Shown piece by piece: positions 1,637 through 63,691 of a DNA stretch of 64,000 nt (within the stretch, counting starts at the first letter, position 1; every line of letters begins with the position of its first letter). The position numbers and the translations under genes were made by a program. The notes under the pieces were generated by a model. The model was not told the origin of the DNA. It saw nothing but the letters and a program-made list of their open reading frames with translations, and made no database searches. Origin of the DNA: a bacterium (lineage in GTDB: Bacteria; Elusimicrobiota; Elusimicrobia; Elusimicrobiales; UBA9959); NCBI GenBank assembly GCA_021786295.1, contig JAJYNO010000029.1, positions 62,001 to 126,000 of the forward strand. The letters run 5' to 3'.

Positions 1637-1642
1637 TATCAT
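1637..1642 (+). promoter_or_regulatory. Extended -10 (TGC-TATCAT) 6 nt before a start codon
   Basis: TGC precedes TATCAT, giving an extended -10. Only six bases separate it from the ATG at 1649, so transcription would begin at or next to the start codon (leaderless mRNA). No clear -35. Confidence 0.5.
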
Positions 1643-1648
1643 TCGTGG

Positions 1649-3496
1649 ATGAAACTTTCCCCGCGGCGGCTGCGCGCGCCGCTGGTCTTCCTGGCCGCGT
1701 TCGCGCTGCGGGCGGCGTTCCTGCTGCAGTGGCTGCGGCTGCCCTATCTCGGCGCTCTCAACTCCGATGCCTGGTCCTACGACAGGTGGGCCATGGCGAT
1801 AGCCCGCGGCGGCCTAGTCCGTTCAGCCGCCTTCTCGCAGTCGCCGCTCTATCCCTATCTTCTGGGGGGGGGTTACAGGCTCTTCGGGCATCATGTCGCG
1901 GGGGCGCTCTGGCTGCAGGTCCTGGCCGATTCGCTGACCTGCGTGCTGGCGATGAGGCTGGGCGAGCGCGCCTTCGGGGAGCGGGCGGGACTATGGACCG
2001 GACTGCTCGCGGCGTTCTACCGCCCGCTCATCTTCGCCGCGGCGGTCCCGGGAAAGGAGACCCTGGCCGTGCTGGCGGCCGCGGCGCTGGCGCTGCTGGC
2101 CCTGCGCGCGGCGGAGAGCGGCAGGAGGCGGGACTATTTCCTGGCCGGCCTGGCCTGCGGCCTGGGCGCGCTGCTGCGCACGAACATGCTCCTTCTGCTG
2201 CCGGCCGCGCTGCTGTGGGCATGGCCGCGGCGGCGCGCCGCCTTCTGGAAGTCCGCCGTCCTGCCCTCGGCGCTTGGCTGCGCGCTGGCGGTGCTGCCCG
2301 CCGCTCTGCACAACTGGGCCGCGAGCCGGGACTTCGTGCTGATAACGTCCAACGGCGGCTACACCTTCTACCTCGGCAACAATCCCTGCGCCACGGGCAC
2401 GCTCGCCTACCCGCCCGGCTTCAGCTCCAACCCGCTGCTGGAGGAGAGCCAGTCCGCCGCTTTCGCGGAAAAGGCCGAGGGACGCCAGCTCAAGCCGTCG
2501 GAGGTCTCGCGCTTCTGGCTGCGCAGGGGCCTGGCCTTCATCTCCGCCGAGCCGGCGCGCTGGGCGGTCCTAACCCTGAAGAAACTGTGGCTTTTCTGGA
2601 ACCGCTACGAGATACCCGACAATTACGACGTGCAGTTCGTGGCCGGCAATTTCCGCACCGTCCTCGGCTGGCCTCTTGCCTCTTTCGCTCTGGCCGGTTC
2701 CCTCGGGGCGCTGGGGCTGTTCTTCTGCCGGCCGCGCGGTCCCTCCGGCCTGCTGCTGTTCCTGTTCCTGGCCTATCTGGCCTCGCTGCTGCCTTTCCTG
2801 ATCGAGGACCGCTACCGCCTGCCGGCGCTGGCTTTCCTGCTGCCGCTGGCCGGCGGGGGGCTGGAGGCGCTGATAACCGCGGCGGGCCGGCGCTCCGTGT
2901 CAGGGATCCGGAGACAGTGCCTGTACGCCGCCCCCCTGGTCTTCGTCTGCCTGTCCCCGCCGCCGTTCGACCTGAAGTTCGCCGAGGGGGCCGGCTGGGG
3001 AAGGCTCGCGGCGATATACGCGTCGGAGGGGCGGCCACGCGAAGCCCTGGAGGCTTTCAGGCGCGCCGCCGGCCTGGACCCGGAGAGCCTGAACCAGTCC
3101 GCGGTCTACGCCGCCGCTGTCTCCCTGGCGGAGCTGGGCGACCCGGAAGGGGCGCTGAAGATGTACGGCGCCGGGCTGGCCGCTATCCCCGGCTCCGCGC
3201 TGCTGGCAGAAGGGCGGGGGGAGCTGCTGCTGAGGCTGGGCCGGAAGGCCGAAGGCGTTAAGGAACTGGAGCGCGCCGTACGGCTGGACCCGGAGCCGGG
3301 GGAGGAGTTCCGCCCGCTGTTCTACGCCTGCCTCGGGCAGGGGCTGGAGAAGAAGGCGCTGGACTACGGGAGGAGGGCCCTCTCCTTCGATCCGGGCGAC
3401 GCCGCCCTGGCCCGGGACCTGGCCGCGCTGGAGCTGCGCGCGGCGCGCGGCAGAAAAGGCGGGCGGTCCGCCGCCGGCGGCCCTTTGCGGCGCTAG
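1649..3496 (+). CDS. GT-C family glycosyltransferase (PMT/ArnT-like) with C-terminal TPR domain
   Basis: Multi-pass membrane protein of 615 aa. The first periplasmic loop has the acidic NSDAWSYDRWA stretch expected after TM1 in dolichyl-phosphate-mannose-type glycosyltransferases, followed by about ten hydrophobic helices to residue ~430 and the EDRYRLPALAF segment common in bacterial members. The last ~170 residues are tetratricopeptide repeats (REALEAFRRAAGLDPE, EGVKELERAVRLDPE). It would move a sugar from a polyprenyl-phosphate donor to a lipid or protein on the periplasmic side; the acceptor cannot be told. The ATG has a weak GTGG upstream and a -10 only six bases away. Fusion of a GT-C core to TPRs is found elsewhere, often near protein glycosylation. 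Confidence 0.8.
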   Translation: MKLSPRRLRAPLVFLAAFALRAAFLLQWLRLPYLGALNSDAWSYDRWAMAIARGGLVRSAAFSQSPLYPYLLGGGYRLFGHHVAGALWLQVLADSLTCVLAMRLGERAFGERAGLWTGLLAAFYRPLIFAAAVPGKETLAVLAAAALALLALRAAESGRRRDYFLAGLACGLGALLRTNMLLLLPAALLWAWPRRRAAFWKSAVLPSALGCALAVLPAALHNWAASRDFVLITSNGGYTFYLGNNPCATGTLAYPPGFSSNPLLEESQSAAFAEKAEGRQLKPSEVSRFWLRRGLAFISAEPARWAVLTLKKLWLFWNRYEIPDNYDVQFVAGNFRTVLGWPLASFALAGSLGALGLFFCRPRGPSGLLLFLFLAYLASLLPFLIEDRYRLPALAFLLPLAGGGLEALITAAGRRSVSGIRRQCLYAAPLVFVCLSPPPFDLKFAEGAGWGRLAAIYASEGRPREALEAFRRAAGLDPESLNQSAVYAAAVSLAELGDPEGALKMYGAGLAAIPGSALLAEGRGELLLRLGRKAEGVKELERAVRLDPEPGEEFRPLFYACLGQGLEKKALDYGRRALSFDPGDAALARDLAALELRAARGRKGGRSAAGGPLRR

Positions 3497-3513
3497 CCCC
3501 GATTACATATAAT
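3485..3513 (+). promoter_or_regulatory. Sigma-70-like promoter (TTGCGG-N17-TATAAT)
   Basis: A consensus -10 at 3508-3513 with a 17-base spacer to TTGCGG, which lies inside the end of the glycosyltransferase gene. It would give the aminopeptidase gene a ~30 nt leader containing its ribosome-binding site. Confidence 0.6.
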
Positions 3514-3550
3514 CAGGAAAGACGCGCAGCCGTGCCGCAGGAGGTGCCAC

Positions 3551-4756
3551 ATGAATGTCTTTTCCGCCCGACAGCTCGAAAAATACGCCGACTCGCTGCT
3601 CTGGGGCCTGACCACAGCCCACCGCAAGCCGTACGGGAAGTACGGGACCGTGCTCGTGCGCTGCGACCTGGGGGCCAAGGACCTCGGCGAACTGGTGCAC
3701 CGCCGCCTGGTGCAGCGCGGGTTCAACGTCGTGTTCAATTTCCTGCCGACGCCCGGCATAGAGCGCGATTTCTACAAATATTCCGACGAGAAACAGCGGG
3801 GCCTCCTCGGCGCCTGGGACAAGGCGCTCTACGAGAACCTGAACGGCTACGTCTATATCCACGCGCCGGCCTCGCTGACGCACCTGAAGGACATAGATCC
3901 AGAGCGGCAGTCGCAGGTGGCCATAGCCAGGAAGCCCCTCTTCGACATACGCAACAAGCGCGAGGAGAAGGGCCTTTTCGCCTGGACGCTGTGCACCTAC
4001 CCCACGGAGGAACTGGCCCGCCAGGCCAGGCTCTCCGTAAAGGAGTACGCCGCGCAGATCGCCAAGGCCTGCTACCTGAACGAGCCCGACCCGGCGAAGA
4101 AGTGGGCGCAGGTCTACAAGGAGAGCATGGCCATCAAGAAGTGGCTCAACGCGCTCCGCATCGATACCATCCGGACCGAGTCAGCCTCGATGGACTTCGA
4201 GGTGAAGCTCGGAGAGAAGCGCAGGTTCCTCGGCGTCAGCGGGCACAACATCCCCAGCTTCGAGATCTTCACCTCTCCGGACTGGCGCGGCACCAAAGGG
4301 GTTTACTACGCCAACCTGCCCACGTTCCGCGGCGGCAACTACGTGGAGAAGATCCGTCTAGAGTTCAAGGACGGCCGCGCGGTCAGGGTGTCAGCCGCGA
4401 AGGGCGACGAGTACGTCAAGAAGGTCGTCGCCACGGACCGCGGCGCCGCGCAGGTGGGCGAATACTCGCTGACGGACCGCCGGTTCTCCAAGATAGACAG
4501 GTTCATGGCCGACATCCTGTTCGACGAGAACCACGGCGGCAGGCACGGCAACTGCCATATCGCCATCGGCAGTTCCTATACCGACACCTTCGCCGGCGAC
4601 CCGGGCAGGCTAGATGGCGCCGCCAGGAAGCGCCTCGGCTACAACGACTCCGCGGTGCACTGGGACATGATCAACACCGAGGATAAGAAGGTCACCGCCA
4701 CGCTGAAGGACGGCAGGAAGGTCACTATCTATGAAAAAGGGAGCTTCAAGCGCTGA
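3551..4756 (+). CDS. Aminopeptidase, peptidase family M29
   Basis: Cytoplasmic dinuclear-metal aminopeptidase of 401 aa, close to the usual AmpS/AmpT length. Likely metal ligands visible in the C-terminal half are Glu304 (GEYSL), His332/His336 (HGNCHIAIG) and the terminal His370-x-Asp372 (HWDMI). Strong ribosome-binding site CAGGAGG upstream of the ATG. It is transcribed alone: a consensus promoter precedes it and a T-tailed hairpin follows. The likely role is peptide turnover. Confidence 0.85.
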   Translation: MNVFSARQLEKYADSLLWGLTTAHRKPYGKYGTVLVRCDLGAKDLGELVHRRLVQRGFNVVFNFLPTPGIERDFYKYSDEKQRGLLGAWDKALYENLNGYVYIHAPASLTHLKDIDPERQSQVAIARKPLFDIRNKREEKGLFAWTLCTYPTEELARQARLSVKEYAAQIAKACYLNEPDPAKKWAQVYKESMAIKKWLNALRIDTIRTESASMDFEVKLGEKRRFLGVSGHNIPSFEIFTSPDWRGTKGVYYANLPTFRGGNYVEKIRLEFKDGRAVRVSAAKGDEYVKKVVATDRGAAQVGEYSLTDRRFSKIDRFMADILFDENHGGRHGNCHIAIGSSYTDTFAGDPGRLDGAARKRLGYNDSAVHWDMINTEDKKVTATLKDGRKVTIYEKGSFKR

Positions 4757-4812
4757 GGCGCGGGCCCGGGGCTTGATTTCCGACGTGAAAATGTGATACT
4801 TTTACCAAGAGG

Positions 4813-4836
4813 GGCGGTCAAAGGGCCGCCTTTTTT
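4813..4836 (+). terminator. Rho-independent terminator
   Basis: Seven-base-pair stem (ggcggtc / ggccgcc, one G-T pair) with loop aaag followed by six T. Ends the aminopeptidase transcript. Confidence 0.8.
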
Positions 4837-4899
4837 GCGATTTAGGGATTGTACCCGCAGGCGCCTAAGCCGCGGGATATTAACAGGAGAAACAGTAAA

Positions 4900-5121
4900 A
4901 TGAAAAAGACAGTACTCTTCGCGCTGCCCCTGGCGGCGCTGTTCTGCGCGGTGGCCTGCAAGAAGCAGGAGGCCGCCGCTCCCGCGCCGGCCGCTAACGA
5001 GCAGGTAGCCGGCACCGCGACCGAGGCCGCCCCGGCCGCGGCCCAGACCGCCACGCCCGCGCCGGCCCCTGCGGCCGCCGCCAAGACCGAGGCGAAGCCC
5101 GCGGAAAAGAAGGGCAAGTAA
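4900..5121 (+). CDS. Small Ala/Pro-rich lipoprotein, function unknown
   Basis: 73 aa. An N-terminal Lys pair and hydrophobic segment end in AVACKK, a lipobox-like site, so the mature protein would be a lipid-anchored, very Ala/Pro-rich and low-complexity tail ending in Lys. The ATG is preceded by CAGGAGAAAC, a good ribosome-binding site, which favours this start over the longer in-frame one. Flanked on both sides by terminator hairpins, so it is an independent unit. No domain recognised; it could be an envelope spacer or linker protein. Confidence 0.7.
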   Translation: MKKTVLFALPLAALFCAVACKKQEAAAPAPAANEQVAGTATEAAPAAAQTATPAPAPAAAAKTEAKPAEKKGK

Positions 5122-5142
5122 GCCTTCTGTCCGCGCGGTCTG

Positions 5143-5176
5143 CCCGGCGTCCGCTTCGGCGGGCGCCGGGTCTTTT
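5143..5176 (+). terminator. Rho-independent terminator
   Basis: CCCGGCG / CGCCGGG arms with an inner TCCGC/GGCGG extension, followed by TCTTTT. Ends the small lipoprotein transcript. Confidence 0.75.
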
Positions 5177-5194
5177 ATAGGGAGAGGACGGGCC

Positions 5195-6460
5195 ATGAAA
5201 GCATTCTTCGCGTCGCTGACAACGGAGCGCGGGCGCCGCGTGGCGCCGGCCATGCTGTTCGCCGGCCTTTCGGCCGGTTTCCTGTTCGGCGGCTACGAGT
5301 TCATCCGCTCCAGCGCGGAGTCCATCTTCATAGGCCGTTTCGGCGCCGACGCCAAACCGTACGCGATGAGCTGCGTGCCGTTCCTGATGGCGCTCCTGAT
5401 ATACCTCTACGGCAGGCTGCTCTCCGCCGTCGGCGGAAAAAAAGCGATGGCAGTCTCGATGCTGGCCAGCTCAGCGTTCTTCCTCCTCGCTTTCCTTGGT
5501 CTGAGGGCCGGCGCCGGCGGGCCGCTGATCTTCCTGCTCTACGTCTTCAAGGAATCCTACGTCGTGGTCATAGCCGAGCAGTACTGGTCGTTCATCAACA
5601 GCACGCTGCGGGAGGAGGAAGGCAGGGCCTACAACGGCCCGGTGGCCGGCGTCGGGGCCATAGGACCGCTGACGGCGGGCTGGCTGGTGGAGCGCTTCGC
5701 CGTCTCCCTGCACACCGATTTTTTCGTGCTGCTGTCCGGCCTGGCGATGCTGCCGGCCCTGTGGCTCTTCTGGCTGGCCTACTCCAGGGCCGGCGAACCG
5801 GAGCCGGCCCCCGAAGAGGCGCACGGCAGGAAGGGGCACCTGCACCTGAGCATCCTGAAGGAGAACAGGACCGTCCTCTGCATAGCGCTGGTCGTCTTCG
5901 CCACCCAGGTCGTGGCCACGATGCTGGAACTGCGCTTCGCGCAGCTGGCGCAGGCCGCTTTCCCGGGGCTGGACCAGCGTACCGCCTTCTTCGGCGGGTT
6001 CTGGATGAAGGTGAACATGTTCTCGTTCACGATGCAGTTCCTGCTGACGCCGCTGCTGCTGCGCTACCTCCCCATACGCCGCATCCAGACGGCCATCCCG
6101 GCGGTGCACCTGGTCACGCTCGGCGCGCTGCTGTTCTATCCGCGGCTTTTTATAGCGGCGCTGGCCTTCCTGCTGTTCAAGGGGCTGGATTATTCTCTCT
6201 TCAGGGCCAGCAAGGAGACGCTGTACATCCCGTTCTCCTACGACACCCGCTACCGCGCCAAGCAGGTGGCCGAAGCCTTCACGTACCGCTTCTCCAAGGG
6301 GCTGACCGCGGCGCTGGTTTCGCTGGCCAGGGCCGCGGGGGAACTGCCGGCCGGGGCCTATCCCGGCACGGCCTTCCTGTTCGCGCTGGGCTGGATGGGC
6401 GCGGCCTTCCCGATGACGGCCGCGCGCGGGGCTTCCCCGGCGGGCGGGCCCCGCGCCTGA
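5195..6460 (+). CDS. NTT (Npt1/Npt2, ATP/ADP translocase) family nucleotide transporter
   Basis: Integral membrane protein of 421 aa with about 11-12 hydrophobic helices. Signatures resembling the NTP/NDP antiporter family are RSSAESIFIGR near the N-terminus, the FKESYVVVIAEQYWSF segment, and the C-terminal SKETLYIPFSYDTRYRAK followed by FTYRFSKG. The family exchanges nucleotides or related metabolites; in free-living bacteria the substrate is often unknown. AGGGAGAGGA upstream serves as ribosome-binding site. It converges on the PorV gene with an 11-base gap. A generic MFS carrier is the alternative call. Confidence 0.75.
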   Translation: MKAFFASLTTERGRRVAPAMLFAGLSAGFLFGGYEFIRSSAESIFIGRFGADAKPYAMSCVPFLMALLIYLYGRLLSAVGGKKAMAVSMLASSAFFLLAFLGLRAGAGGPLIFLLYVFKESYVVVIAEQYWSFINSTLREEEGRAYNGPVAGVGAIGPLTAGWLVERFAVSLHTDFFVLLSGLAMLPALWLFWLAYSRAGEPEPAPEEAHGRKGHLHLSILKENRTVLCIALVVFATQVVATMLELRFAQLAQAAFPGLDQRTAFFGGFWMKVNMFSFTMQFLLTPLLLRYLPIRRIQTAIPAVHLVTLGALLFYPRLFIAALAFLLFKGLDYSLFRASKETLYIPFSYDTRYRAKQVAEAFTYRFSKGLTAALVSLARAAGELPAGAYPGTAFLFALGWMGAAFPMTAARGASPAGGPRA

Positions 6461-6471
6461 TATCGCCGCGC

Positions 6472-7449
6472 TTATTCGAAAACGATAGTGGCCGAGATTC
6501 GGTGGACGGAGCCGAGGTCACCGAACGGGGAAAAGGAGTAGTCCAGCCTGTAATCGGTGTAGCGCAGGCCGCCGCCCATTGAGACGTTGCGGGTCCCGCC
6601 CAGGTCGGTTATGGCCCGCGTGTTGAACCCCGCGCGCAGCGCCGCGTCTATATCGCGGCTCACCGGGACGCTGAGCTCTCCTCCCATCGCCAGGAAGGGC
6701 AGCGAATCGCGGGGCGCGACTATGTCGCCGGTCAGGTTGAAATAGCTCCCCAGCTTCGTGAGGGTGCCCAGGCGCAGTATCATCGGCAGCGGAGAATCCT
6801 CCTTGTCGTAGCGCAGCGAGCCCATGATGTTCTGCGCCACCAGGCTGACGCGGAAGTTGTTGTCGAACATGTACGGCAGGTTGAGCCCGATGTCGGCGGA
6901 GACAGTGTTGTCTCCGGAGATTATCTTCGATTTTACGAATTTGCCCGTGGCGCCCAGCACGAAGCGGTCCTCTGGCTCCTCGTTGAAGCCGGTTATGTAG
7001 CAGGCGAAGCCCACGCTGATCTCGGTGTCGGAAGGGGAGAAGCTTCCCAGGTCCACGCCGCTGGCGTCGGTCTGCGTGATCTTGCCGTAATTCATGTACT
7101 TGAAGGCTACTCCCCAGGACCCGACCTCGCCGGCGTTCTCGGCGTAGGCCAGATAGTCGGCGTACGAGCCGGCCAGGTAGGGGGAGTGCATCATGGCCAT
7201 GGAGTTCTTCTTCACGTGGATCAGGCCGGCCGGGTTCCAGTCCAGCGCGAAGGCGTCGTCGGCGAGGGCTGCGTAGGCCTCTCCCATGGCGGCGCCGCGC
7301 GCGCCCATGGCTATCTTCAGGAACTGCGCGGCGGCAGTGCCGACGGAAGAGGAATCGTAGCCTGCGGCCGGCGCGGGGAGGGCCGGGGCGCAGAGCAGCA
7401 GCGCCGCTCCGGCCGCGGTCCTCAGGCGTTTCAAAGCCGCTCCCTTCAT
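6472..7449 (-). CDS. PorV/PorQ-family outer-membrane protein
   Basis: 325 aa with a signal peptide (hydrophobic run ending APAAG). The mature N-terminus carries the family hallmark FLKIAMGARGAAMGEAYAAL ... DAFALDWNPAGL, followed by alternating amphipathic strands and a terminal Phe-Glu, fitting an outer-membrane beta-barrel. In Bacteroidota, PorV shuttles type IX secretion cargo and PorQ helps attach it. It lies 16 bases downstream of, and in the same operon as, a large FN3 protein with a sorting-domain-like C-terminus, which fits a shuttle/cargo pair. Whether a type IX machine exists cannot be seen here. Confidence 0.8.
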   Translation of the reverse strand: MKGAALKRLRTAAGAALLLCAPALPAPAAGYDSSSVGTAAAQFLKIAMGARGAAMGEAYAALADDAFALDWNPAGLIHVKKNSMAMMHSPYLAGSYADYLAYAENAGEVGSWGVAFKYMNYGKITQTDASGVDLGSFSPSDTEISVGFACYITGFNEEPEDRFVLGATGKFVKSKIISGDNTVSADIGLNLPYMFDNNFRVSLVAQNIMGSLRYDKEDSPLPMILRLGTLTKLGSYFNLTGDIVAPRDSLPFLAMGGELSVPVSRDIDAALRAGFNTRAITDLGGTRNVSMGGGLRYTDYRLDYSFSPFGDLGSVHRISATIVFE

Positions 7450-10400: not shown

Positions 10401-11143
10401 ATGACCTTGTAGCCTTCGGAGGTCATGGCCTGTACCGCCGGGTCGTAGACCGGGGTCCAGGAGATGGTGGCGCTGGTCTCGTGCACCTCCTCCGAGACTC
10501 CCGGAAGGGCCAGGGCCATGGTGGCGGTGGAGATGTACGGGGTGTACGGCGTGGCCGCCCCTGAAACGCCCACCGCCCGTACCTTGAAGTAGTAAGTGGT
10601 GTTGGCGTTCAGGCCGCCAAGGGTGGCCGGCGGGTAGCCGGGCATGGCGGAGGCAGAGGGGGAGAAGGACGAATTCAGGGCGTACTGCATCTCGTAAGCC
10701 GTCCACTCCGGATTCCCTCCGGTGTCCCAGCCCAGCCGCGCCGTGGCGGTGAAGGACGAATCCGACGTGAAATAGGACGGCACCGAGTACAGGGCGGAAG
10801 GGGCGGCCACCCAGGTGGCCGTGGAGGCCGTTTCGTAGGCCGAGTCCGGGGCAGACTGGCTTTTGACGCGGAAATAGTAGACCGTGTCCTGGCCGAGGCC
10901 GGTATAGGAGGTGGTGTTCGCGGAGAGGGCCCCGGTGGCGGTCTGCACCAGGAACAGCGGGTCCGTGGACAGGGCTACCGTGAAAGGCCCGCCTATGTTA
11001 TTCCAGGCGAAGGAAAGCGCGGAGAGCCCGGAAGCCGAGGTCTGGGGATCGAGCGTAGCGGCCGCCGGGGACGGCAGAACGGAGAAGACCGGCAGCAGCG
11101 CTGCGGCCAGCAGCTTGAATACGGTTCTTTGCCGCGGAAACAT
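7466..11143 (-). CDS. Large secreted protein: ten FN3 repeats, ZU5-like domain, C-terminal FlgD/T9SS-like sorting domain
   Basis: 1225 aa. A signal peptide (residues ~1-28) is followed by about ten fibronectin type III repeats of roughly 90 aa, each with a version of the strand motif L-x-P-N-T-T-Y-Y-F-R (e.g. GLNANTTYYFKVRAV, TLDPNTTYYFRAASLN, GLAPNNTYYLRLGTLN). Then comes a ZU5-like unit (GQISVHIPPGALGGATRL). The last ~90 residues (VKVYPNPYRPN ... EIKIYTFLGELVR ... WDGLNRDGREAASGVYIA) match FlgD-Ig/type A sorting-like domains. It is presumably an extracellular adhesin-like or surface protein. First gene of an operon with porV. The ATG has no ribosome-binding site and sits six bases after an extended -10. 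Confidence 0.85.
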   Translation of the reverse strand: MFPRQRTVFKLLAAALLPVFSVLPSPAAATLDPQTSASGLSALSFAWNNIGGPFTVALSTDPLFLVQTATGALSANTTSYTGLGQDTVYYFRVKSQSAPDSAYETASTATWVAAPSALYSVPSYFTSDSSFTATARLGWDTGGNPEWTAYEMQYALNSSFSPSASAMPGYPPATLGGLNANTTYYFKVRAVGVSGAATPYTPYISTATMALALPGVSEEVHETSATISWTPVYDPAVQAMTSEGYKVILQNDPTLTSPSVWGTPSPAVSSAGFTGLSRNTGYWYKAGALNWAGAPNMSDIRYFVTLAAVPQGLARSSVTAGTASLTWTPLGPGETYGYRVEASADPSWSYGAIQSSSAYDASVSTLTIVTLDPNTTYYFRAASLNTAGDPNYTASLSSVTLSLPIYADVAWANAQPQAITVGFVPLPQDLQAFSCEGYRLEASTSPFGSGGAVISSATYDVYPTDSARQLTVQGLAPNNTYYLRLGTLNWQYTPDYTVLPSTHTGFPGDLTNVALNAVWSSSASVSFTPGIAAEGHVAEASASPYFDTIYASSSTPSGTASGLIINGLDPNTTYYFRAGALYNGATVYTNTVPGYRQTLPQPLTALSFAGVYQSSVTVSWAPLAGTSQSSSAESYILQAAASPAFSPVLFSSSTEDISRDRLTISGLSPDTSYYFRTGTVNMEGYANYSFTPDTATMANQPASQSYAGITPDSLTLTWGPNGNPDDTRYMVEMSSYPDYSFARPPQTVALTTVTFSGLLPNTTYYSRATAINRLGRATQALDFSPMATGAFDPGVMPFSGVSVSSLTVNWSSGAAAGFLNKPGTFYLVSVSSGQDFSGTVLSSVTLGLSATFYGLLSDTSYYLRVSALNLTGVPTEPPVQLGTALTLPATAYLLPPDATFPPAQMMIDGFTAAWGPDGNSPDTRYYVEASSVDTVSGPDFGVSSSSCLVQGLSCTLAGLQIDTQYWLRVQAVGQTGALADFVDLGSTRTLLSATGSAPALQDTVVTLDASYGQISVHIPPGALGGATRLTLSPSTTTLAGPASAVSALTPTGIGVTIGYFPPALVLGAITITVPYRLSDLPAGIDPARLVLAFYDEADRVWVPLPSVSDVPARRVTAQTWHLSTFQLMQTSQAAGLAEVKVYPNPYRPNSVTGVMHFSDLPPYSEIKIYTFLGELVRKLKADINGMAQWDGLNRDGREAASGVYIAYVQSPDKKSSRSLKVAVER

Positions 11144-11149
11144 TGGTAT

Positions 11150-11158
11150 AGTCTAGCA
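11150..11158 (-). promoter_or_regulatory. Extended -10 (TGC-TAGACT) 6 nt before the FN3 gene start
   Basis: On the minus strand TGC-TAGACT is followed by six bases and then the ATG, predicting a leaderless message for the FN3-porV operon. Confidence 0.5.
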
Positions 11159-19316: not shown

Positions 19317-19322
19317 AGTATA
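19317..19322 (-). promoter_or_regulatory. -10 element TATACT 8 nt before the marC-like start
   Basis: The hexamer on the minus strand sits so near the ATG at 19308 that little or no leader would be transcribed. Confidence 0.4.
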
Positions 19323-25861: not shown

Positions 25862-25867
25862 ATTCTA
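25862..25867 (-). promoter_or_regulatory. -10 element TAGAAT 7 nt before a start codon
   Basis: Minus-strand hexamer preceded by TTTG. The short distance to the ATG implies a leaderless transcript for the receiver/PEP-binding gene. Confidence 0.5.
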
Positions 25868-40812: not shown

Positions 40813-40818
40813 TAGAAT
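40813..40818 (+). promoter_or_regulatory. -10 element TAGAAT 8 nt before a start codon
   Basis: Followed by CTTATCTC and then ATG, with no ribosome-binding site; predicts a leaderless message for the DMT transporter. Confidence 0.5.
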
Positions 40819-45774: not shown

Positions 45775-45780
45775 ATACTA
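45775..45780 (-). promoter_or_regulatory. -10 element TAGTAT 7 nt before mltA
   Basis: Followed by TCTGATT and then ATG; predicts a leaderless message. Confidence 0.45.
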
Positions 45781-45835
45781 CATAATGGGTCCGGGGAAAT
45801 CAATACCGGCGGCGCCAGGACCCGGCCCGGAAACG

Positions 45836-46135: not shown

Positions 46136-46330
46136 TCAGCGCAGGGCGCAAGCGGCTTCCACGGCCGCCCGTTCCTGCCCGGCGGCGGAAGCCTGCCAGA
46201 GCTTCAAAGAAAGGAAGATCTCGGCCGCGGGGCCGGCGCCGAGCATATAGATCCTAAGGCTTCCCCTGAGCCTGCCGTCCAGGAAGCCGGCCTTCGCGCT
46301 GATTATAGATCTGTGCCTTCTGTTGGTCAT
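46136..46330 (-). CDS. Small hypothetical protein
   Basis: 64 aa, basic N-terminus (MTNRRHRSIISAKAGFLDGR) and a helical Ala-rich rest. No ribosome-binding site; the extended -10 TGC-TATGCT ends six bases before the ATG, the spacing seen at other genes here. No domain recognised. Confidence 0.4.
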   Translation of the reverse strand: MTNRRHRSIISAKAGFLDGRLRGSLRIYMLGAGPAAEIFLSLKLWQASAAGQERAAVEAACALR

Positions 46331-46336: not shown

Positions 46337-46345
46337 AGCATAGCA
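46337..46345 (-). promoter_or_regulatory. Extended -10 (TGC-TATGCT) 6 nt before a start codon
   Basis: Minus strand; predicts a leaderless transcript for the small gene at 46330. Confidence 0.4.
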
Positions 46346-46457
46346 GACCAACCCGACAAGGGGCTGTCGCGTTCCCGTGTCCGTTCCCGGCCCCCGGGGG
46401 GCGGGCGGGGCATTCCTTATATATTGACGCTCCCGGAAGGAGCGGGGCGCGGCGGGC

Positions 46458-55815: not shown

Positions 55816-55821
55816 TATTAT
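55816..55821 (+). promoter_or_regulatory. -10 element TATTAT 8 nt before a start codon
   Basis: Preceded by TTTTG and followed by AGGGATAC and the ATG at 55830; a nearly leaderless start is predicted. The AGGGA would lie at the extreme 5' end. Confidence 0.45.
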
Positions 55822-57551: not shown

Positions 57552-57917
57552 ATGAGAATAAAATACAGCGTAGCGCGCAACAAGCGCAAGAAGAAGATCT
57601 TAAAGCTCTCCAAGGGCTACTACGGCAACAAGGGCAACCGCCTGCGCCAGGCCAAGCAGCAGGTGGACAAGTCCCTGACCACCGCCTACATCCACCGCCG
57701 CGACAAGAAGGGCGATATCCGCCAGCTGTGGATAGTCCGCCTGAACGCGGCCGCCCGCGAGGAGGGACTCTCCTACAGCCGTTTCATGGACGGCCTGAAG
57801 AAGGCCAACATCGTCCTGAACCGCAAGATGCTGTCGGAGATGGCCATCCGCGATCCACAGTCTTTCAAGCAGCTCGCCGAGATAGCTAAGAAAGCGGTCG
57901 CCGCCCCGGCGAAGTAA
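57552..57917 (+). CDS. rplT: 50S ribosomal protein bL20
   Basis: 121 aa: SVARNKRKKKILKLSKGYYGNKGN, AYIHRRDKKGDIRQLWIVRLNAAAR, SRFMDGLKKANI. Follows rpmI as in most bacteria, where L20 represses this operon; no repression site could be assigned. Confidence 0.95.
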   Translation: MRIKYSVARNKRKKKILKLSKGYYGNKGNRLRQAKQQVDKSLTTAYIHRRDKKGDIRQLWIVRLNAAAREEGLSYSRFMDGLKKANIVLNRKMLSEMAIRDPQSFKQLAEIAKKAVAAPAK

Positions 57918-57926
57918 GGGACTTCC

Positions 57927-58973
57927 GTGAACGCCACGGAATGGAAGGAGAAACTGTCCGCAATACGGGACAGTTTCTCCGTTTCTATAGCCAATAAGCC
58001 AGCCGAGAACCCGGAGGCTCTGGAACTGCGCTTCCTGGGGCGCAAGGGAGAACTGGCGCTGCTCCTGCGGGACCTGAAAGACATCCCGCTGGAGGAGCGC
58101 AGGGCCCTTGGCGCGCTGGGCAACTCCGCCAAGGCCGAGATGGAGGCCAGGCTCTCCGAGCTCAAGGGCGCCGCTCCCGCGGCCGGACCCGCCGCGCCCG
58201 GGATAGACCTGACGCTTCCGGGCCTGCCCTATCCCAAGGGCAGCCTGCACCCGCTGACCATCACGATGAACCGCCTGGCCGAAGGCTTTCTGAAGCTGGG
58301 CTTCACGATGTCCGACGGGCCGCTGGTCGAGGACGATTACCATAATTTCGAGGCGCTGAACTTCCCTCCTTTCCACCCGGCCCGCGACATGCAGGACACG
58401 TTCTACGTGGACGTCAAGGACGCCGCCGGCAAGGACATGCTGCTGCGCACGCACACCTCGCCGGTGCAGATCCGGTCGATGGAGAAGCAGGAGCCGCCTA
58501 TACGCGTCTTCCACACCGGCCGCGTGTTCCGCTCGGAGGCCGTGGACGCCAGCCATTCGTTCACGTTCCACCAGATAGAGGGACTTTACGTGGACAAGGG
58601 CGTGAGCATGGCGGACCTGAAGTGGACGGTGGACACGTTCATGAAGGACCTGTTCGGCACGGGCGTGAAGACGCGCTTCAACCCGTCGTATTTCCCGTTC
58701 GTGGAGCCAGGCGCGGAAGTGGATATGAGCTGCGTTTTCTGCAAGAGCGGCTCCGGGCGCTGTCCGGTGTGCAAGGGCACTGGCTGGCTGGAAGTGATGG
58801 GCGCAGGGCTGGTGCACCCCAACGTGCTGAAGGCCTGCAGGTACGACCCCGCCAAGTGGAGCGGGTTCGCTTTCGGCGCGGGCATTGAGCGCTTCGCGAT
58901 GCTGCTGTTCGGCATCAGCGACATGCGCATGCTCTACGAGAACGACCTGCGGGTGCTGAAGCAGGTTGCCTAG
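57927..58973 (+). CDS. pheS: Phenylalanyl-tRNA synthetase alpha subunit
   Basis: 348 aa catalytic subunit. GTG start nine bases after rplT, with AAGGGA upstream. A helical N-terminal arm, then the class II core: HPLTITMNRLAEGFLKLGF, HNFEALNFPPFHPARDMQDTF (motif 1 region), LRTHTSPVQIRSM, RVFRSEAVDASHSFTFHQIEG (motif 2), a four-cysteine knuckle CVFCKSGSGRCPVCKG, and motif 3 GAGIERFAMLLFGI. Confidence 0.95.
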   Translation: MNATEWKEKLSAIRDSFSVSIANKPAENPEALELRFLGRKGELALLLRDLKDIPLEERRALGALGNSAKAEMEARLSELKGAAPAAGPAAPGIDLTLPGLPYPKGSLHPLTITMNRLAEGFLKLGFTMSDGPLVEDDYHNFEALNFPPFHPARDMQDTFYVDVKDAAGKDMLLRTHTSPVQIRSMEKQEPPIRVFHTGRVFRSEAVDASHSFTFHQIEGLYVDKGVSMADLKWTVDTFMKDLFGTGVKTRFNPSYFPFVEPGAEVDMSCVFCKSGSGRCPVCKGTGWLEVMGAGLVHPNVLKACRYDPAKWSGFAFGAGIERFAMLLFGISDMRMLYENDLRVLKQVA

Positions 58974-58997
58974 CTTCTACGGGGGCGGTTTCGCCAA

Positions 58998-59130
58998 GGA
59001 TGCCGGAACGCGGAACCGCCGTCACTGCAGTGGCCTGTGGCCACCCGCACACCGTGCTCGCGCCTGCCCGTCCCGGCCCTCGCGCTATGCAAGCTCGGGC
59101 CTCCGACAGGCTTCCGCTAACCCGGCATCC
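58998..59130 (+). repeat. Intergenic repeat, copy 3 of 3 (divergent)
   Basis: Shares GCACACCGTGC, then CTCGCGCTATGCAAGC with copies 1 and 2. Flanked by its own perfect nine-base inverted repeat (ggatgccgg and ccggcatcc), different in sequence from the arms of copy 1. A second inverted pair GGCGGTT/AACCGCC overlaps the left end. It fills most of the pheS-pheT gap. Confidence 0.5.
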
Positions 59131-59167
59131 TCGTCGAAACCTTAACGTGTTCTAAAGAAGAAAAGAT

Positions 59168-61555
59168 ATGAAGATCCTTTATTCTTGGCTGGGTGATTTC
59201 CTGGAGAACCCTCCGCCGCCGCAGGAGCTGGCGGCGAAGCTGGGGCGCATCGGGCTGAAGGTGGAGGGGGTAGAGAAGACCGGAGCCTCTTTTACTGGCG
59301 TCTGCGTGGGACGGATCGAGAAGATAGACCGGCACCCGAACGCGGACAAACTCTCGCTGGTGGACGTGAACGACGGCAGTGGCGTGATGCGCGTGGTCTG
59401 CGGCGCCAGGAACATAGCCGTGGGGCAGAAGATCCCGTTCGCGAAGGTGGGGGCGAAGCTCGCCGAAGGGGAGCTCAAGAAGGCCAAGATCCGCGGCGTG
59501 GAGTCCGAGGGGATGATCTGTTCCGCTGAGGAGCTAGGTCTGGACGGCTACGACAATTCCGGTATCCTGGTGCTGCCGGAGGATTCCGCGGTAGGCGCCG
59601 ACGCGGCGACGCTCTTCCCCAGGGCGGACCACGTGCTCGAGCTGGAGATCCTGCCCAACCAGGCCCACTGCCTGTCGCACTACGCGCTGGCGCGCGAGCT
59701 TTCCGTCTTCTACGGCCTCAAGCTGAAGGAGCCCTCCGCCGCAAAGACGGAGGCCGGCGGGACGGCCGTCCCGGTGGAGATAAAGGTGCCGGAGACGTGT
59801 CCCCGGTACGTGGCCGCGGTGCTAAAGGGCGTTAAAGGCGCCAGGACCCCCGAGTGGATGGCCTCCCGCCTGCGCGCGATAGGCTCCAACCCGAAGGGCA
59901 ATATCCTGATAGACGGCTCCAATTACGTTATGTACGAGCTGGGCCAGCCCACGCACTGCTTCGACATAGCCAAGCTCTCCGGCCCCAGGATCGTAGTCCG
60001 CCGCGCCATGCCGGGCGAGATGCTGAAGACCCTGGACGGCAGGGACCTGAAGCTGGACCCGGGTATGATGGTGATCGCCGACTCCTCCAGGCCGGTCGCT
60101 CTGGCCGGCGTGATGGGCGGTCTGGACTCGTCGGTCTCGGACGGGACCGACGCCGTGCTGATAGAGTCGGCGCGGTTCGATCCTCCCACGGTGCGGCTGG
60201 CCTCCAGGACCAGCGGCATCAAGAGCGAGTCGTCCTACCGTTTCGAGCGCGGCACCGACCCGGAACTGCCGGCGAAGGCGGCGCGCAGGCTGGCCGGCCT
60301 TATACTGGAGGCCGCCCCCGGCGCCGCGGCGGAGCAGTTCGCGGACAACTGCCCGGTGAAGTACCAGCCGGCGGAAATAACGGTAGAGCCGGCGAAGATA
60401 AATTCCATACTCGGCACCGGCATAGCCGACGGAGAGATAGCGGCCTGCCTCAGGGCTTTTCAGCCGGACCTGAAGGATTCCAGGCCGTGGAACTTCGTGC
60501 CGCCCTCCTACCGCCAGGACATAGAGGGGATCTGCGACGTGGCGGAGGAAGTCGCCCGCTACGTCGGCTACGATGTTATCCCGTCGGTCTCCGCCATGCC
60601 GATGCTCCCTTCGTCCCCTACCCAGCAGTGGACGGCCGCCTCCGAGCTGAAGGCTTCGCTGGCGGGGCTCGGCTTCAGCGAGGTCTTCAACTACGATTTC
60701 GTCTCGGCCAGGGAACTGGGCGCCTGCGGGCTGGCCCCGGAGACAGCGCTGGAGGTGAAGAACCCGCTCTCCGCTGATTACCAGTACCTGCGGCCGTCGC
60801 TGCTGCCGGGCCTGCTGAAGACGCTGCGCTACAACCTCAACCGCGGCCGCGAGACCGCGCTGATCTTCGAGACCGGCACCGCCTACGCCCGCAGGGACGG
60901 CGGCAGGGCGGAGAACGTCGTCTGCGCCGGCCTGATGTACGGCCCTCTCCCCGAAGGCGGCTCCTGGCTGGGAGGCGGGGCCGCGTCGGACTTCTACCAG
61001 CTCAAGGGCGTGACCACCCGCCTCTTCGCCGGCAAGGGCGGCTTCCGCTACGAGAAGCCGCAGAACGCGCCGGCCTATTTCCAGCCGGGCCGCTGCCTGG
61101 AGATGAGGCTCGGGGGGGCGTCAGCCGGCTATCTGGGCAATATCGCTCCGGCTGTGGCTTCGGCCTGCGACCTGAAGGACGGGGAGATCCTCTGTTTCGA
61201 GGTCCCGGTGGGCGCTCTGGCCGCGGCCGGCAAGGCCGAGTTCTGGCAGAGGGTGGCAAGGATCAAGCCGGTCTCCCCGTTCCCGCACAGCTGGCGCGAT
61301 CTTTCCGTCGTGCTGGAGGAACGGCACGAGTGGAGCGAACTAGAGCGCTCCTTCTCAGGAGTGCAGGACCTCGCTTCGGCCAGGCTGATGGACGTCTACA
61401 AGGGCAAGAACATCCCGGCCGGCCACCGCAGCCTCACGATACGCTTCACGTTCTCCTCGATGGAGAAAACCCTGAACGACGCCGACGTGAGCGCCCGCAT
61501 GGCCTCCATACTGGACAGGCTGACCAGGAGTTTCGGCGCGAGGCTGAGGTCCTGA
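59168..61555 (+). CDS. pheT: Phenylalanyl-tRNA synthetase beta subunit
   Basis: 795 aa. N-terminal tRNA-binding OB domain (VGRIEKIDRHPNADKLSLVDV, VVCGARNI), B3/B4 editing domain (YVMYELGQPTHCFDIAKL), B5 domain, pseudo-catalytic class II core (ETALIFETGTAYARRD), and the C-terminal anticodon-binding FDX-ACB domain (KPVSPFPHSWRDLSVVLEE ... MDVYKGKNIPAGHRSLTIRF). Separated from pheS by a repeat-filled 194-base gap, wider than is usual, so it may have its own promoter. Confidence 0.95.
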   Translation: MKILYSWLGDFLENPPPPQELAAKLGRIGLKVEGVEKTGASFTGVCVGRIEKIDRHPNADKLSLVDVNDGSGVMRVVCGARNIAVGQKIPFAKVGAKLAEGELKKAKIRGVESEGMICSAEELGLDGYDNSGILVLPEDSAVGADAATLFPRADHVLELEILPNQAHCLSHYALARELSVFYGLKLKEPSAAKTEAGGTAVPVEIKVPETCPRYVAAVLKGVKGARTPEWMASRLRAIGSNPKGNILIDGSNYVMYELGQPTHCFDIAKLSGPRIVVRRAMPGEMLKTLDGRDLKLDPGMMVIADSSRPVALAGVMGGLDSSVSDGTDAVLIESARFDPPTVRLASRTSGIKSESSYRFERGTDPELPAKAARRLAGLILEAAPGAAAEQFADNCPVKYQPAEITVEPAKINSILGTGIADGEIAACLRAFQPDLKDSRPWNFVPPSYRQDIEGICDVAEEVARYVGYDVIPSVSAMPMLPSSPTQQWTAASELKASLAGLGFSEVFNYDFVSARELGACGLAPETALEVKNPLSADYQYLRPSLLPGLLKTLRYNLNRGRETALIFETGTAYARRDGGRAENVVCAGLMYGPLPEGGSWLGGGAASDFYQLKGVTTRLFAGKGGFRYEKPQNAPAYFQPGRCLEMRLGGASAGYLGNIAPAVASACDLKDGEILCFEVPVGALAAAGKAEFWQRVARIKPVSPFPHSWRDLSVVLEERHEWSELERSFSGVQDLASARLMDVYKGKNIPAGHRSLTIRFTFSSMEKTLNDADVSARMASILDRLTRSFGARLRS

Positions 61556-61556
61556 C

Positions 61557-61793
61557 ATGAAGCGCAAGCTCAGCGGCGTCTGCGCGAGGGAGGTCTCTTT
61601 CCGCGTGCGGGGAGGGCGGCTGACAGGAGTGTCTTTTTCCAGCGGCTGTCCCGGGAATCTGAAGGCGCTGTCGCTGCTGCTGGAGGGGATGCCGGTCAAG
61701 GACGCGGTCCTGAAGCTCAAAGGCATAACCTGCGGCAGCAGGCCGACCTCATGCTCGGACCAGCTGGCCCGGGCGCTGGAGAGCGTTCTCTGA
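61557..61793 (+). CDS. TSCPD-domain protein
   Basis: 78 aa, starting one base after the pheT stop (TGACATG). LSGVCAREVSFRVRGGRLTGVSFSSGCPGNLKALSLLLEGM and ITCGSRPTSCSDQLARAL match the TSCPD fold found in a ribonucleotide-reductase-linked domain and as stand-alone proteins (TIGR03905-like). Four cysteines could bind metal. Function unknown. Ends the pheT transcript before a terminator. Confidence 0.8.
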   Translation: MKRKLSGVCAREVSFRVRGGRLTGVSFSSGCPGNLKALSLLLEGMPVKDAVLKLKGITCGSRPTSCSDQLARALESVL

Positions 61794-61815
61794 ACCTTGG
61801 GCGGGTCCAGGGCGG

Positions 61816-61839
61816 GCCGGGCGAAGGCCCGGCTTTTTT
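61816..61839 (+). terminator. Rho-independent terminator
   Basis: GCCGGGC/GCCCGGC stem, loop gaag, six T. Ends the pheT-TSCPD transcript. Confidence 0.85.
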
Positions 61840-62215
61840 ATTTCCCGCCGCCGCCGGATAAAAATCTTTCAGCGGTCTCCTTCAACTGCCGGTGGTCGAA
61901 AGGCTTGTACAGGACGGCGTCGTAATTGCGCCCCGGGAGGCGGCGCATCACCTGTTCCTCGCTCAGGCCGGTCACGATTATGATCCTTACCTCCGGGTGG
62001 TTCTCCCTTACGTATTCTGCCAGGGAATAGCCAGGCTCCCCGGGCAGTATCAGGTCAAGGAACATCAGTTCCGGCACCTTTCCCGCCTTCAGATATCCGA
62101 GAGCCGACTCGACGTTGTCCACTGAGACTATTTCCTCGTGGCCGAGATATTTCAGCGTCTCCTTGACGAGGAAACGCACGGAAAGATCGTCTTCTACCAC
62201 CATGAACGATGACAT
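61838..62215 (-). CDS. Single-domain response regulator
   Basis: 125 aa. Receiver with EDD acidic cluster, FLDLILPGEPG phosphoacceptor, VTGLSEE and YKPFDHRQ (conserved Lys). No output domain; the protein ends in GGGGK. GGGAGGG lies 13 bases before the first ATG; a second ATG (MVVEDD) is an alternative start. Divergent from the histidine kinase at 62320, its likely partner. Confidence 0.9.
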   Translation of the reverse strand: MSSFMVVEDDLSVRFLVKETLKYLGHEEIVSVDNVESALGYLKAGKVPELMFLDLILPGEPGYSLAEYVRENHPEVRIIIVTGLSEEQVMRRLPGRNYDAVLYKPFDHRQLKETAERFLSGGGGK

Positions 62216-62307
62216 AGCTCTGATACCCTCCCCCGCGGGCCGGCCTTAGCGGCCGGCGGGGTTATTATACCAATAAACCCGCGGCCGCGAGCCGCGCCGG
62301 AAAGTGA

Positions 62308-62313
62308 TAGAAT
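62308..62313 (+). promoter_or_regulatory. Extended -10 (TGA-TAGAAT) 6 nt before a start codon
   Basis: Followed by ATCCGC and ATG; predicts a leaderless kinase message. Confidence 0.5.
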
Positions 62314-62319
62314 ATCCGC

Positions 62320-63369
62320 ATGCGCAGGGGTTTTTTCAGGTACTTGGAGAACCACAAGGCCGTAGTCTGGGCCCTCATCATCGCGCTGCTGGCTTTGGTA
62401 GGCTGGGCGGACTACGCGCTTGGCTACGAGATCAGCGTCTCTTTCTTCTATCTTTTCCCGGTCGCGCTGGCGGCCTGGTTCATAGGCGCCCCCACAGGCC
62501 TGGTGGTCTCCGTGGCCGCGGGCGTTATCTGGCACCTGACGGACATCGATTCCGGGCACGTGTACAGTTCCGAGGCGATCGCCTACTGGAACGCCCTGGC
62601 CAGGGTCCTTTTCTTCTCCGTCACGGCGGTCTCGCTCTGCAGAATAAGGCGGTTCATGTTCCGCGAGCGCCGGCTGGCGGCTCTGAAGTCCGAGATGGTC
62701 TCGCTGGTCAGCCACGAAGTGAGCAACGCGCTGGTAGCCATAAGCCTAGCCTCCAACCTGCTGGAGGAGGAGGAGGGTGAGAACATCGCCCCGAACCGCA
62801 AGAAGTTCTACGCCATAATGGCCGAGACCAGGGGCAAGCTGTCGAGACTGGTCAAGACCTTCCTGGCCAAGGCGAGGCTGGAGTCCGGGAAGTTCGGGCT
62901 GGAACTGCAGAGGGTGGAACTGCGCCGGCTGGTGGACGGACTGCTGGCCCCGCTCGACGTGCTGGCCGACGAGAAGGGGGTGTCAGTGACGACCTCCTTC
63001 CCCGCGGAGATCGTCCCCGTGAAATGCGACCCGGACGTGATAGGCCTGGTAATAGGGAACCTGATAGGCAACGGCGTGAAGTATACGCCGCGAGGCGGCA
63101 AAGTGTCGATAACCGTCTCCGAGCCGGGCGCGGACGGGCAGGTGGAGGTCTCGGTCAGGGACACCGGCATAGGGATAGCGCGCGAAGAGATAAAAAAAGT
63201 GCTCACCGGCTTTTACCGGACCGAGACCGCGGCCAAAGAAGCGGCGGGCTTCGGCATAGGGCTGAAGGCTTCGCGGGAGTTCCTCGAGGCGCACGGCAGC
63301 GTCCTGATGGCGGAAAGCGAGCCGGGGCGGGGGTCGCGGTTCTATTTCCGCCTGCCGGTCTGGAAATAG
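62320..63369 (+). CDS. Membrane sensor histidine kinase
   Basis: 349 aa, a paralogue of the kinase at 29722. About four N-terminal helices carry the ISVSFFYLFPVALAAWFIG pattern. HisKA His132 sits in SHEVSNALVAI (no proline after the box). HATPase: GNLIGNGVKYT, DTGIGI, GFGIGL. ATG directly after an extended -10 with no ribosome-binding site. The divergent single-domain receiver at 61838 is the probable partner; sharing of the sensor type between the two kinases suggests related signals. Confidence 0.9.
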   Translation: MRRGFFRYLENHKAVVWALIIALLALVGWADYALGYEISVSFFYLFPVALAAWFIGAPTGLVVSVAAGVIWHLTDIDSGHVYSSEAIAYWNALARVLFFSVTAVSLCRIRRFMFRERRLAALKSEMVSLVSHEVSNALVAISLASNLLEEEEGENIAPNRKKFYAIMAETRGKLSRLVKTFLAKARLESGKFGLELQRVELRRLVDGLLAPLDVLADEKGVSVTTSFPAEIVPVKCDPDVIGLVIGNLIGNGVKYTPRGGKVSITVSEPGADGQVEVSVRDTGIGIAREEIKKVLTGFYRTETAAKEAAGFGIGLKASREFLEAHGSVLMAESEPGRGSRFYFRLPVWK

Positions 63370-63412
63370 AGGCAGGCTGTCCGGCGCTGTCTCCGTTCCC
63401 CGCATTGTTTAC

Positions 63413-63418
63413 TATAAT
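63413..63418 (+). promoter_or_regulatory. -10 element TATAAT 6 nt before a start codon
   Basis: Perfect hexamer followed by TTATCA and the ATG at 63425; leaderless transcript predicted for the coiled-coil/ZapA pair. Confidence 0.55.
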
Positions 63419-63424
63419 TTATCA

Positions 63425-63691
63425 ATGCACAACCGCATCAGGAGCCTGGAGAAGCTCGTCTCCGACGCCTCCGTTCTCATAGCGCGGCTGCGGGAGGAGA
63501 ACGAGGTCCTCAGGAAGCAGGTGGAACTGCTGGGCGCGGAGCGCGGCAAGTCCGCCTCGGGGAACGCCGCCGCGCGGGAGCTGGCCGATTTCAAGGCCAG
63601 GGTGCGCCGCCGGCTGGAGCGCATCTGCGCCAGGATAGAGAGGGGGGACGAGCTGCAGCCGGGCCTGTTCGGGGAAGACGATGAACAGTAA
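63425..63691 (+). CDS. Small coiled-coil protein (ZapB-like by position)
   Basis: 88 aa. A continuous coiled coil (SLEKLVSDASVLIARLREEN, EVLRKQVELLGAERG), then a charged helix (FKARVRRRLERICARIERGD). It overlaps a ZapA-like gene by 11 bases. A coiled-coil partner next to zapA often takes the place of ZapB in division-ring bundling; this role is inferred from position only. Confidence 0.65.
   Translation: MHNRIRSLEKLVSDASVLIARLREENEVLRKQVELLGAERGKSASGNAAARELADFKARVRRRLERICARIERGDELQPGLFGEDDEQ

What the first reader, a model, noticed from the sequence alone, without database searches (positions are those of the whole stretch)
1637..63427. Ten genes with a -10 hexamer 6-8 nt before the start codon and no ribosome-binding site
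TANNNT-type -10 elements end 6-8 bases before the start at 1649 (TATCAT), 11143 (TAGACT), 19308 (TATACT), 25854 (TAGAAT), 40827 (TAGAAT), 45767 (TAGTAT), 46330 (TATGCT), 55830 (TATTAT), 62320 (TAGAAT) and 63425 (TATAAT). Four have the TGn extension. Polymerase normally starts about 7 bases after the -10, so these messages would begin at the start codon. Other first genes in the window have clear GGAGG-type sites, so two start modes coexist. Leaderless genes are known in actinobacteria, Deinococcus and archaea; a high share here would be notable for this lineage.
Basis: partly seen in the sequence, partly recalled or inferred. Interest (0 to 1): 0.8.

Follow-up and report, generated by a model that had tools for sequence, protein, structure and literature searches.

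The report
Leaderless genes in an Elusimicrobiota genome
A small but real fraction of genes in this little-studied group of bacteria carry their promoter right up against the start codon, so their messages probably begin at the first codon with no ribosome-binding site; this way of starting genes is known from other bacteria, and here several genes have kept it across related species.

Summary
All ten TANNNT hexamers are where stated and end 6-8 nt before an ATG. The genome belongs to the Elusimicrobiota, judged by named relatives. In 628 kb of it, TANNNT sites 6-8 nt before 228 operon-first genes number 35 against 17.0 expected, and 29 against 14.6 without the window; shuffling a 429-kb sample gives 7.6 +/- 2.6 against 26. 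Genes with the site rarely have a Shine-Dalgarno (SD) core (2 of 34, against 90 of 194 other first genes), and E. coli shows no such peak. Across a genus the -10 stays 6-8 nt from the ATG while flanking DNA diverges: MltA 19 of 19, PPDK-like 18 of 21, EamA 15 of 18, MarC 11 of 13, a 64-aa ORF 7 of 7. It is weaker for DUF218 (10 of 19) and mostly absent in homologues of the gene at 1649 (2 of 9). Best explanation: leaderless transcription, as in Actinobacteria and Deinococcus. The share is modest (excess about 8% of first genes). Relatives in the class show the same peak; outside it the signal is weak. No 5' ends were measured. New member of a known kind.

The parts
1637..1642 (+). -10 TATCAT, 6 nt before ATG 1649 (PMT_2/TPR protein, 615 aa), TGn extension
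   Evidence: only 2 of 9 homologues have a -10 at this spacing
11150..11155 (-). -10 TAGACT, 6 nt before ATG 11143 (fn3 protein, 1225 aa), TGn extension, TTGAGA 16 bp upstream
   Evidence: conservation not tested
19317..19322 (-). -10 TATACT, 8 nt before ATG 19308 (MarC family)
   Evidence: 11 of 13 genus orthologues, own included, at 6-8 nt
25862..25867 (-). -10 TAGAAT, 7 nt before ATG 25854 (response regulator + PPDK_N, 983 aa)
   Evidence: 18 of 21, own included, at 6-8 nt
40813..40818 (+). -10 TAGAAT, 8 nt before ATG 40827 (EamA transporter)
   Evidence: 15 of 18, own included, at 6-8 nt
45775..45780 (-). -10 TAGTAT, 7 nt before ATG 45767 (MltA/3D protein)
   Evidence: 19 of 19, own included, at 6-8 nt
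45798..45803 (-). -35-like TTGATT, 17 bp upstream of the MltA -10, visible in most aligned orthologues
46337..46342 (-). -10 TATGCT, 6 nt before ATG 46330, TGn extension
   Evidence: 7 of 7 copies, own included, at exactly 6 nt
46136..46330 (-). conserved small ORF, 64 aa, no Pfam match at E<=1
55816..55821 (+). -10 TATTAT, 8 nt before ATG 55830 (DUF218 protein)
   Evidence: 10 of 19, own included, at 6-8 nt, 13 of 19 at 5-9 nt
62308..62313 (+). -10 TAGAAT, 6 nt before ATG 62320 (histidine kinase), TGn extension
   Evidence: 3 of 3 closest copies, own included, at 6 nt
63413..63418 (+). -10 TATAAT, 6 nt before ATG 63425 (88-aa protein)
   Evidence: identical 15-nt string in the nearest relative G009

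Best explanation
These are leaderless genes. Housekeeping-type RNA polymerase recognises a -10 element of the form T-rich/TGn + TA(T/G)AAT placed 6-8 nt before the ATG, usually without a good -35, and starts transcription on or within about two bases of the A of the ATG. The mRNA has no SD site and is translated by recognition of the 5'-terminal AUG. Many other genes use ordinary leaders with SD sites. Shown here: the position, the -10 consensus, the near-exclusion with SD cores, the rarity before operon-internal genes and the conservation. Inferred: polymerase use, the 5' end and the mode of translation.
For: Positional peak at 6-8 nt: 35 sites in 228 first genes against 17.0 expected (P 9e-5), and 29 against 14.6 without the window; E. 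coli treated the same way, 2 against 4.9. Shuffles 26 against 7.6 +/- 2.6. Nearly exclusive with SD: 2 with and 32 without, against 90 and 104 in other first genes (Fisher P 2e-6), while TANNNT at 25-27 nt shows no such link (P 0.77). Operon-internal genes 4 of 198. Only T, A and T were fixed in the search, yet free positions 4 and 5 are 76% and 70% A in 50 sites, against 43% and 50% in 30 distal control sites. Footprint: over 586 divergent pairs the hexamer and the five columns before it are 60-100% identical, the 25 columns further upstream 23-49%. The hexamer keeps 6-8 nt from the ATG in MltA 19/19, PPDK 18/21, EamA 15/18, MarC 11/13, HK 3/3, DUF218 10/19 and the 64-aa ORF 7/7.
Against: No RNA data. 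Homologues of the gene at 1649 mostly lack the feature (2 of 9), as do 6 of 19 DUF218 orthologues even at 5-9 nt. Some sites lie at 9-13 nt (MarC L032 at 11, PPDK L296 at 13), which would leave a few leader bases. At most two of the ten have a recognisable -35. The site is not confined to clear first genes: 13 of 121 genes with a same-strand gap of 20-79 nt also have it without SD. Hexamer identity is partly built in, because rows were anchored on TANNNT; the free middle columns (65, 80, 96%) and the flank are the informative ones. Starts that were not ATG were moved to an ATG within three codons before counting, so 92 of 93 ATG starts there is not independent evidence; one DUF218 row (L087) stayed on a misplaced start. 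SD cores also occur in 1 of 19 MltA, 3 of 19 DUF218 and 1 of 21 PPDK rows. About half of the sites counted at 6-8 nt are expected by chance, so single sites without conservation are uncertain.
Confidence: 0.87

Rival explanations
1. The -10 elements are real, but transcription starts a few bases upstream, leaving a very short leader (2-6 nt) that is too short for an SD but not strictly zero.
For: Spacing varies among orthologues, for example MarC 6, 7, 8, 9 and 11 nt.
Against: The mode is 6-7 nt, which puts +1 on or one base before the A; in family f7, 12 of 65 first genes sit at exactly 6 nt against 1.2 expected.
Confidence: 0.1
2. The TANNNT strings are a by-product of AT-rich, weakly structured start regions (or S1-binding tracts) that help SD-less translation; real promoters lie further upstream.
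For: The bases just before the hexamer are T-rich; published work notes that AT-rich biases near starts may have either cause (PMC5397173, passages read).
Against: Other A/T templates of the same shape are less enriched or depleted at this place (0.30-1.62, against 2.07 for TANNNT, in this genome); free positions take the sigma-70 -10 consensus; operon-internal starts rarely have it (4 of 198).
Confidence: 0.05
3. The start codons are misassigned, so the -10 only appears to touch the ORF; true starts lie downstream with ordinary leaders.
For: Of 77 E. coli genes recovered, the start caller agrees with annotation in 59. Four of the ten genes have an SD-preceded in-frame start downstream: 55830 at codon 12, 46330 at 29, 63425 at 33, 19308 at 42.
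Against: Between this genome and G009, codons 2-30 of five of the genes show substitutions mostly at third positions (16, 10, 39), though MltA alone does not (3, 4, 3); most orthologous proteins align from residues 1-5.
Confidence: 0.04

Closest known systems
TA-led leaderless genes of bacteria (Zheng et al. 2011, PMC3160421; passages read)
   Same: TANNNT with its first T about 12 bp before the start, equal to a gap of 6 nt; SD genes coexist; the paper argues that only the proximal gene of an operon can be leaderless.
   Different: Elusimicrobiota are not named in the passages read (the table has an 'Other Bacteria' row that may include one); that paper finds little information in the middle positions of high-GC genomes, here they still favour A; the share here is modest.
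-10 motif adjacent to ORFs in Deinococcus-Thermus (PMC12340547; passages read)
   Same: Same two-motif upstream landscape (-10 motif or RBS motif); there tested by mutation and reporters.
   Different: There about 30% of ORFs on average; here an excess of about 8% of first genes. Different phylum; function not tested here.
Leaderless mRNAs of mycobacteria (PMC4633059, PMC3898074; search listing and abstract starts only)
   Same: Leaderless and SD messages in one high-GC genome.
   Different: There shown by 5'-end and profiling data; here by sequence only.

Membership tests
Bacterial leaderless (-10-adjacent) genes | TANNNT -10 ending about 6 nt before the start codon, above chance | tested here: met
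   35 against 17.0 in 228 first genes, P 9e-5; 29 against 14.6 without the window; shuffles 26 against 7.6
Bacterial leaderless (-10-adjacent) genes | No Shine-Dalgarno site in these genes, while other genes have one | tested here: met
   2 of 34 with SD core against 90 of 194 other first genes; 16S tail keeps the anti-SD (complement of the strand printed)
Bacterial leaderless (-10-adjacent) genes | Mainly operon-first genes | tested here: met
   First 34 of 228, internal 4 of 198; but 13 of 121 with same-strand gaps of 20-79 nt, whose operon status is unclear
Bacterial leaderless (-10-adjacent) genes | Position conserved among orthologues | tested here: met
   Met for MltA, PPDK, EamA, MarC, HK and the 64-aa ORF, partly for DUF218; not met for the gene at 1649, 2 of 9; 11143 not tested
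Bacterial leaderless (-10-adjacent) genes | mRNA 5' end at or within a few nt of the start codon | not testable with these tools
   Needs dRNA-seq
Bacterial leaderless (-10-adjacent) genes | The hexamer drives transcription (mutational test) | not testable with these tools
   Needs reporters
Clade with a high leaderless share (as Deinococcus-Thermus) | A share of roughly 20-40% of genes | tested here: not met
   Raw 49 of 547 genes; excess about 8% of first genes. Misplaced starts make this a low estimate

The most novel reading that the evidence does not exclude
Leaderless expression is an old, selected trait of the class Elusimicrobia: particular genes (the MltA transglycosylase, a PPDK-like protein, an EamA transporter, MarC and a 64-aa protein) have been kept leaderless across a whole genus, which suggests that starting without a leader is itself useful for them, for instance by responding to the state of the ribosome or initiation factors.
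Probability: 0.35. Interest if true: 0.5.

Novelty: new member of a known kind. Interest (0 to 1): 0.36.

Why it matters
Gene finders tuned to SD sites can misplace starts and miss small genes such as the 64-aa ORF in such genomes. The result adds a phylum of mostly uncultured bacteria to those with evidence for two start modes, and gives gene families with a clear, testable prediction for 5'-end mapping. Retention of the arrangement at the same genes across a genus makes it possible to ask whether it is selected or neutral.

Tried and rejected
PF04560 was tried as a marker but has no match in this assembly, so a MarC scan served for taxonomy. A class-only distribution was considered and not claimed: outside the class the pooled count at exactly 6 nt is 17 against 7.2 (P 1e-3), but at 6-8 nt 26 against 21.6 (P 0.2), and none of the three genomes exceeds its shuffles (84, 268 and 219 of 300 reach the observed value, smaller samples). 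Enrichment of the window was considered: 8 of 60 window genes against 41 of 487 elsewhere have -10 at 6-8 nt and no SD; no test was made and none is claimed.

Literature: 'leaderless' with 'elusimicrobi' gave two papers. PMC10783764 (passages) names Elusimicrobia in an anti-SD table among the places shown; PMC7448276 (passages) holds both words in unrelated places. A search for any two of Elusimicrobi, transcription start site, Shine-Dalgarno (12 of 451 listed) listed nothing on promoters of this phylum. The GeneMarkS-2 paper is not held, so its genome list was not checked; PMC9581028 was read in passages.

Rows dropped before counts: genes without 60 nt of upstream sequence or with N there. 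Loci left out of the footprint: MarC L036-L052 and MltA L076-L082 (distant matches); MltA L072-L075 (match begins at query residue 19 or later); DUF218 L102-L103 (partial); HK L107-L133; EamA L282 (partial) and L283-L287 (about 40% identity). For PPDK, 20 of 22 relatives with full-length matches were fetched. Named MarC relatives L138, L141 and L142 were read (nearest sites at 6, 9 and 15 nt) but not counted; the other named Elusimicrobia or 'bacterium' MarC loci were not used. For the 64-aa ORF, 19 MltA loci were searched (own included); 12 gave no match from residue 1, but those loci hold only 1500 nt or less on each side, so absence there says little.
Full report
What was checked. The window is contig C10, 62001-126000, of a 2.3-Mb, 37-contig assembly that is 79% complete. 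Among 22 named loci for its MarC protein, six are Elusimicrobia MAGs (74-86% identity), three closer or similar hits are MAGs titled only 'bacterium' (87-96%), and the rest are Verrucomicrobia (49-58%), so I place it in the Elusimicrobiota. The 16S gene keeps a standard anti-SD tail, so SD-led translation is available.

The ten sites. Every hexamer is present at the stated place and ends 6-8 nt before an ATG; four have TGn. Nine of these starts were chosen independently by a gene finder that uses coding statistics and a start-codon prior but no upstream motif. The tenth, 46330, opens a 64-aa ORF that the finder missed. Translated search of 19 held MltA loci, own included, finds relatives aligned from residue 1 in six others (39-48% identity), and 7 of 7 copies, own included, have TATGCT exactly 6 nt before the ATG.

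Is it more than chance? In 628 kb of this genome (547 usable genes, 228 operon-first, 198 operon-internal) the TANNNT count at 6-8 nt is 35 against 17.0 expected from positions 12-45 (P 9e-5); without the window it is 29 against 14.6 (P 5.5e-4). Dinucleotide shuffling of the first 429-kb sample gives 7.6 +/- 2.6 against 26, with 0 of 300 shuffles as high. Shuffling does not control for AT-rich start regions, so eight A/T templates were compared: TANNNT stands at 2.07 times its shifted-window mean in this genome and 1.97 in class relatives; the next highest are 1.62 (ATNNNA) and 1.49 (AANNNA) here and 1.23 in the relatives. Three 50-kb stretches of E. coli K-12 treated the same way show 2 against 4.9. 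The finder's starts agree with annotation in 59 of 77 recovered E. coli genes (83 CDS listed, from two of the three stretches), so misplaced starts blur the peak.

Anatomy. Genes with the -10 at 6-8 nt rarely have an SD core (2 of 34, against 90 of 194 other first genes; Fisher P 2e-6), while TANNNT at 25-27 nt shows no such relation (P 0.77). The same exclusion reaches P below 0.05 in G018, G108, G033, G157, G056 and G049, but not in G166 (P 0.16) or G065 (P 0.29). In 50 sites from three genomes of the same family the unconstrained fourth and fifth positions are A in 76% and 70%, with T-rich bases before the hexamer; 30 distal control sites show 43% and 50%. Start codons of the -10-only first genes in the 429-kb sample are ATG in 22 of 24. 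A -35 is recognisable in the MltA promoter (TTGATT, 17 bp) and perhaps at 11143 (TTGAGA, 16 bp); the other eight differ from TTGACA at four positions. Genes with a same-strand gap of 20-79 nt, whose operon status is unclear, have the site without SD in 13 of 121.

Conservation. Orthologues were taken from up to 24 other genomes of the genus. The -10 lies 6-8 nt from the aligned ATG in MltA 19 of 19, PPDK-like 18 of 21, EamA 15 of 18, MarC 11 of 13, histidine kinase 3 of 3 and DUF218 10 of 19, own genome included. One of the ten DUF218 rows (L087) was counted from a misplaced start; read from a GTG two codons upstream its -10 would sit at 7 nt (my reading). In the same upstream regions, each 3-nt window from 18 nt outward holds at most one such site per family; windows at 12-17 nt hold up to 7 (EamA), by eye mostly in the AT-rich block just before the hexamer. 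Over 586 divergent pairs the hexamer and the five columns before it are 60-100% identical, against 23-49% in the 25 columns further upstream; hexamer positions 1, 2 and 6 are 100% by construction. For the gene at 1649, nine homologues were read and two have the element, both at an ATG about 16-17 codons before the aligned start, so that site is recent or chance. The gene at 11143 was not tested. The 63425 site is identical in the nearest relative, G009, which is weak evidence because the two are so close.

Extent. Other genomes of the class, pooled over five samples and four families: 61 sites against 31.5 (P 2e-6), and at exactly 6 nt 36 against 10.5 (P 6e-10). One family (G166) has 12 sites in 65 first genes at exactly 6 nt against 1.2 expected. 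A 1,643,562-base single-contig genome of another family of the same order (G033) has 15 in 82 against 4.9 at exactly 6 nt, though at 6-8 nt only 21 against 14.6 (P 0.07). G033's length matches that of Elusimicrobium minutum as I recall; no call confirms it. G018 has 16 against 8.3 (P 0.01), G108 4 against 1.3 (P 0.045), and G157 7 against 3.7 (P 0.08). Against shuffles of the smaller first samples, 0, 0, 2, 1 and 7 of 300 reach the observed count in G018, G033, G108, G166 and G157. Three genomes outside the class give 26 against 21.6 at 6-8 nt (P 0.2) but 17 against 7.2 at exactly 6 nt (P 1e-3), and do not exceed shuffles.

How it most likely works. Polymerase with the main sigma factor binds the -10 (often with T-rich or TGn extension), starts about 7 nt downstream, and so begins the mRNA at or next to the AUG, which the ribosome recognises directly. 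These steps are inferred from work in other bacteria. The share is modest: an excess of 7.9% of first genes by this strict pattern, and 49 of 547 genes raw with no SD. Published averages are 39.4% of genes for Deinococcus-Thermus and 19.2% for Actinobacteria (PMC3160421, passages).

Known or new. The phenomenon is established (PMC3160421, PMC12340547; passages read). I found no report for Elusimicrobiota in the searches, which cover open-licence papers only and, a listing of 12 of 451; Zheng's survey may include one genome under 'Other Bacteria'. I therefore file it as a new member of a known kind.

Noticed in passing
46354-46369 (-), and upstream of the same ORF in L056, L063, L067, L068, L071: An inverted repeat (CGACA...TGTCG) sits over the -35 region of the leaderless 64-aa gene; by eye it keeps pairing while its outer bases change among relatives. 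It could be an operator or the terminator of the gene before it.
   Followed up: partly
46136-46330 (-): A conserved 64-aa protein with no Pfam match at E<=1, missed by coding-statistics gene finding.
   Followed up: partly
45798-45803 (-) and MltA orthologues L053-L071: Most MltA promoter regions conserve TTGATTT..CTCAA, a -35-like hexamer within a short inverted repeat; the window's own copy and a few others lack the second half.
   Followed up: no
G000 assembly: No match to the RNA polymerase beta-subunit family PF04560 in this 79%-complete assembly, presumably a gap in the assembly.
   Followed up: no
G166 (family f7) sample, L188-L194 and L244-L250: This family places the -10 at exactly 6 nt (12 of 13 sites at 6-8 nt) with G in 58% of 12 sites at -14, a tighter spacing than in the window's genus.
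   Followed up: partly
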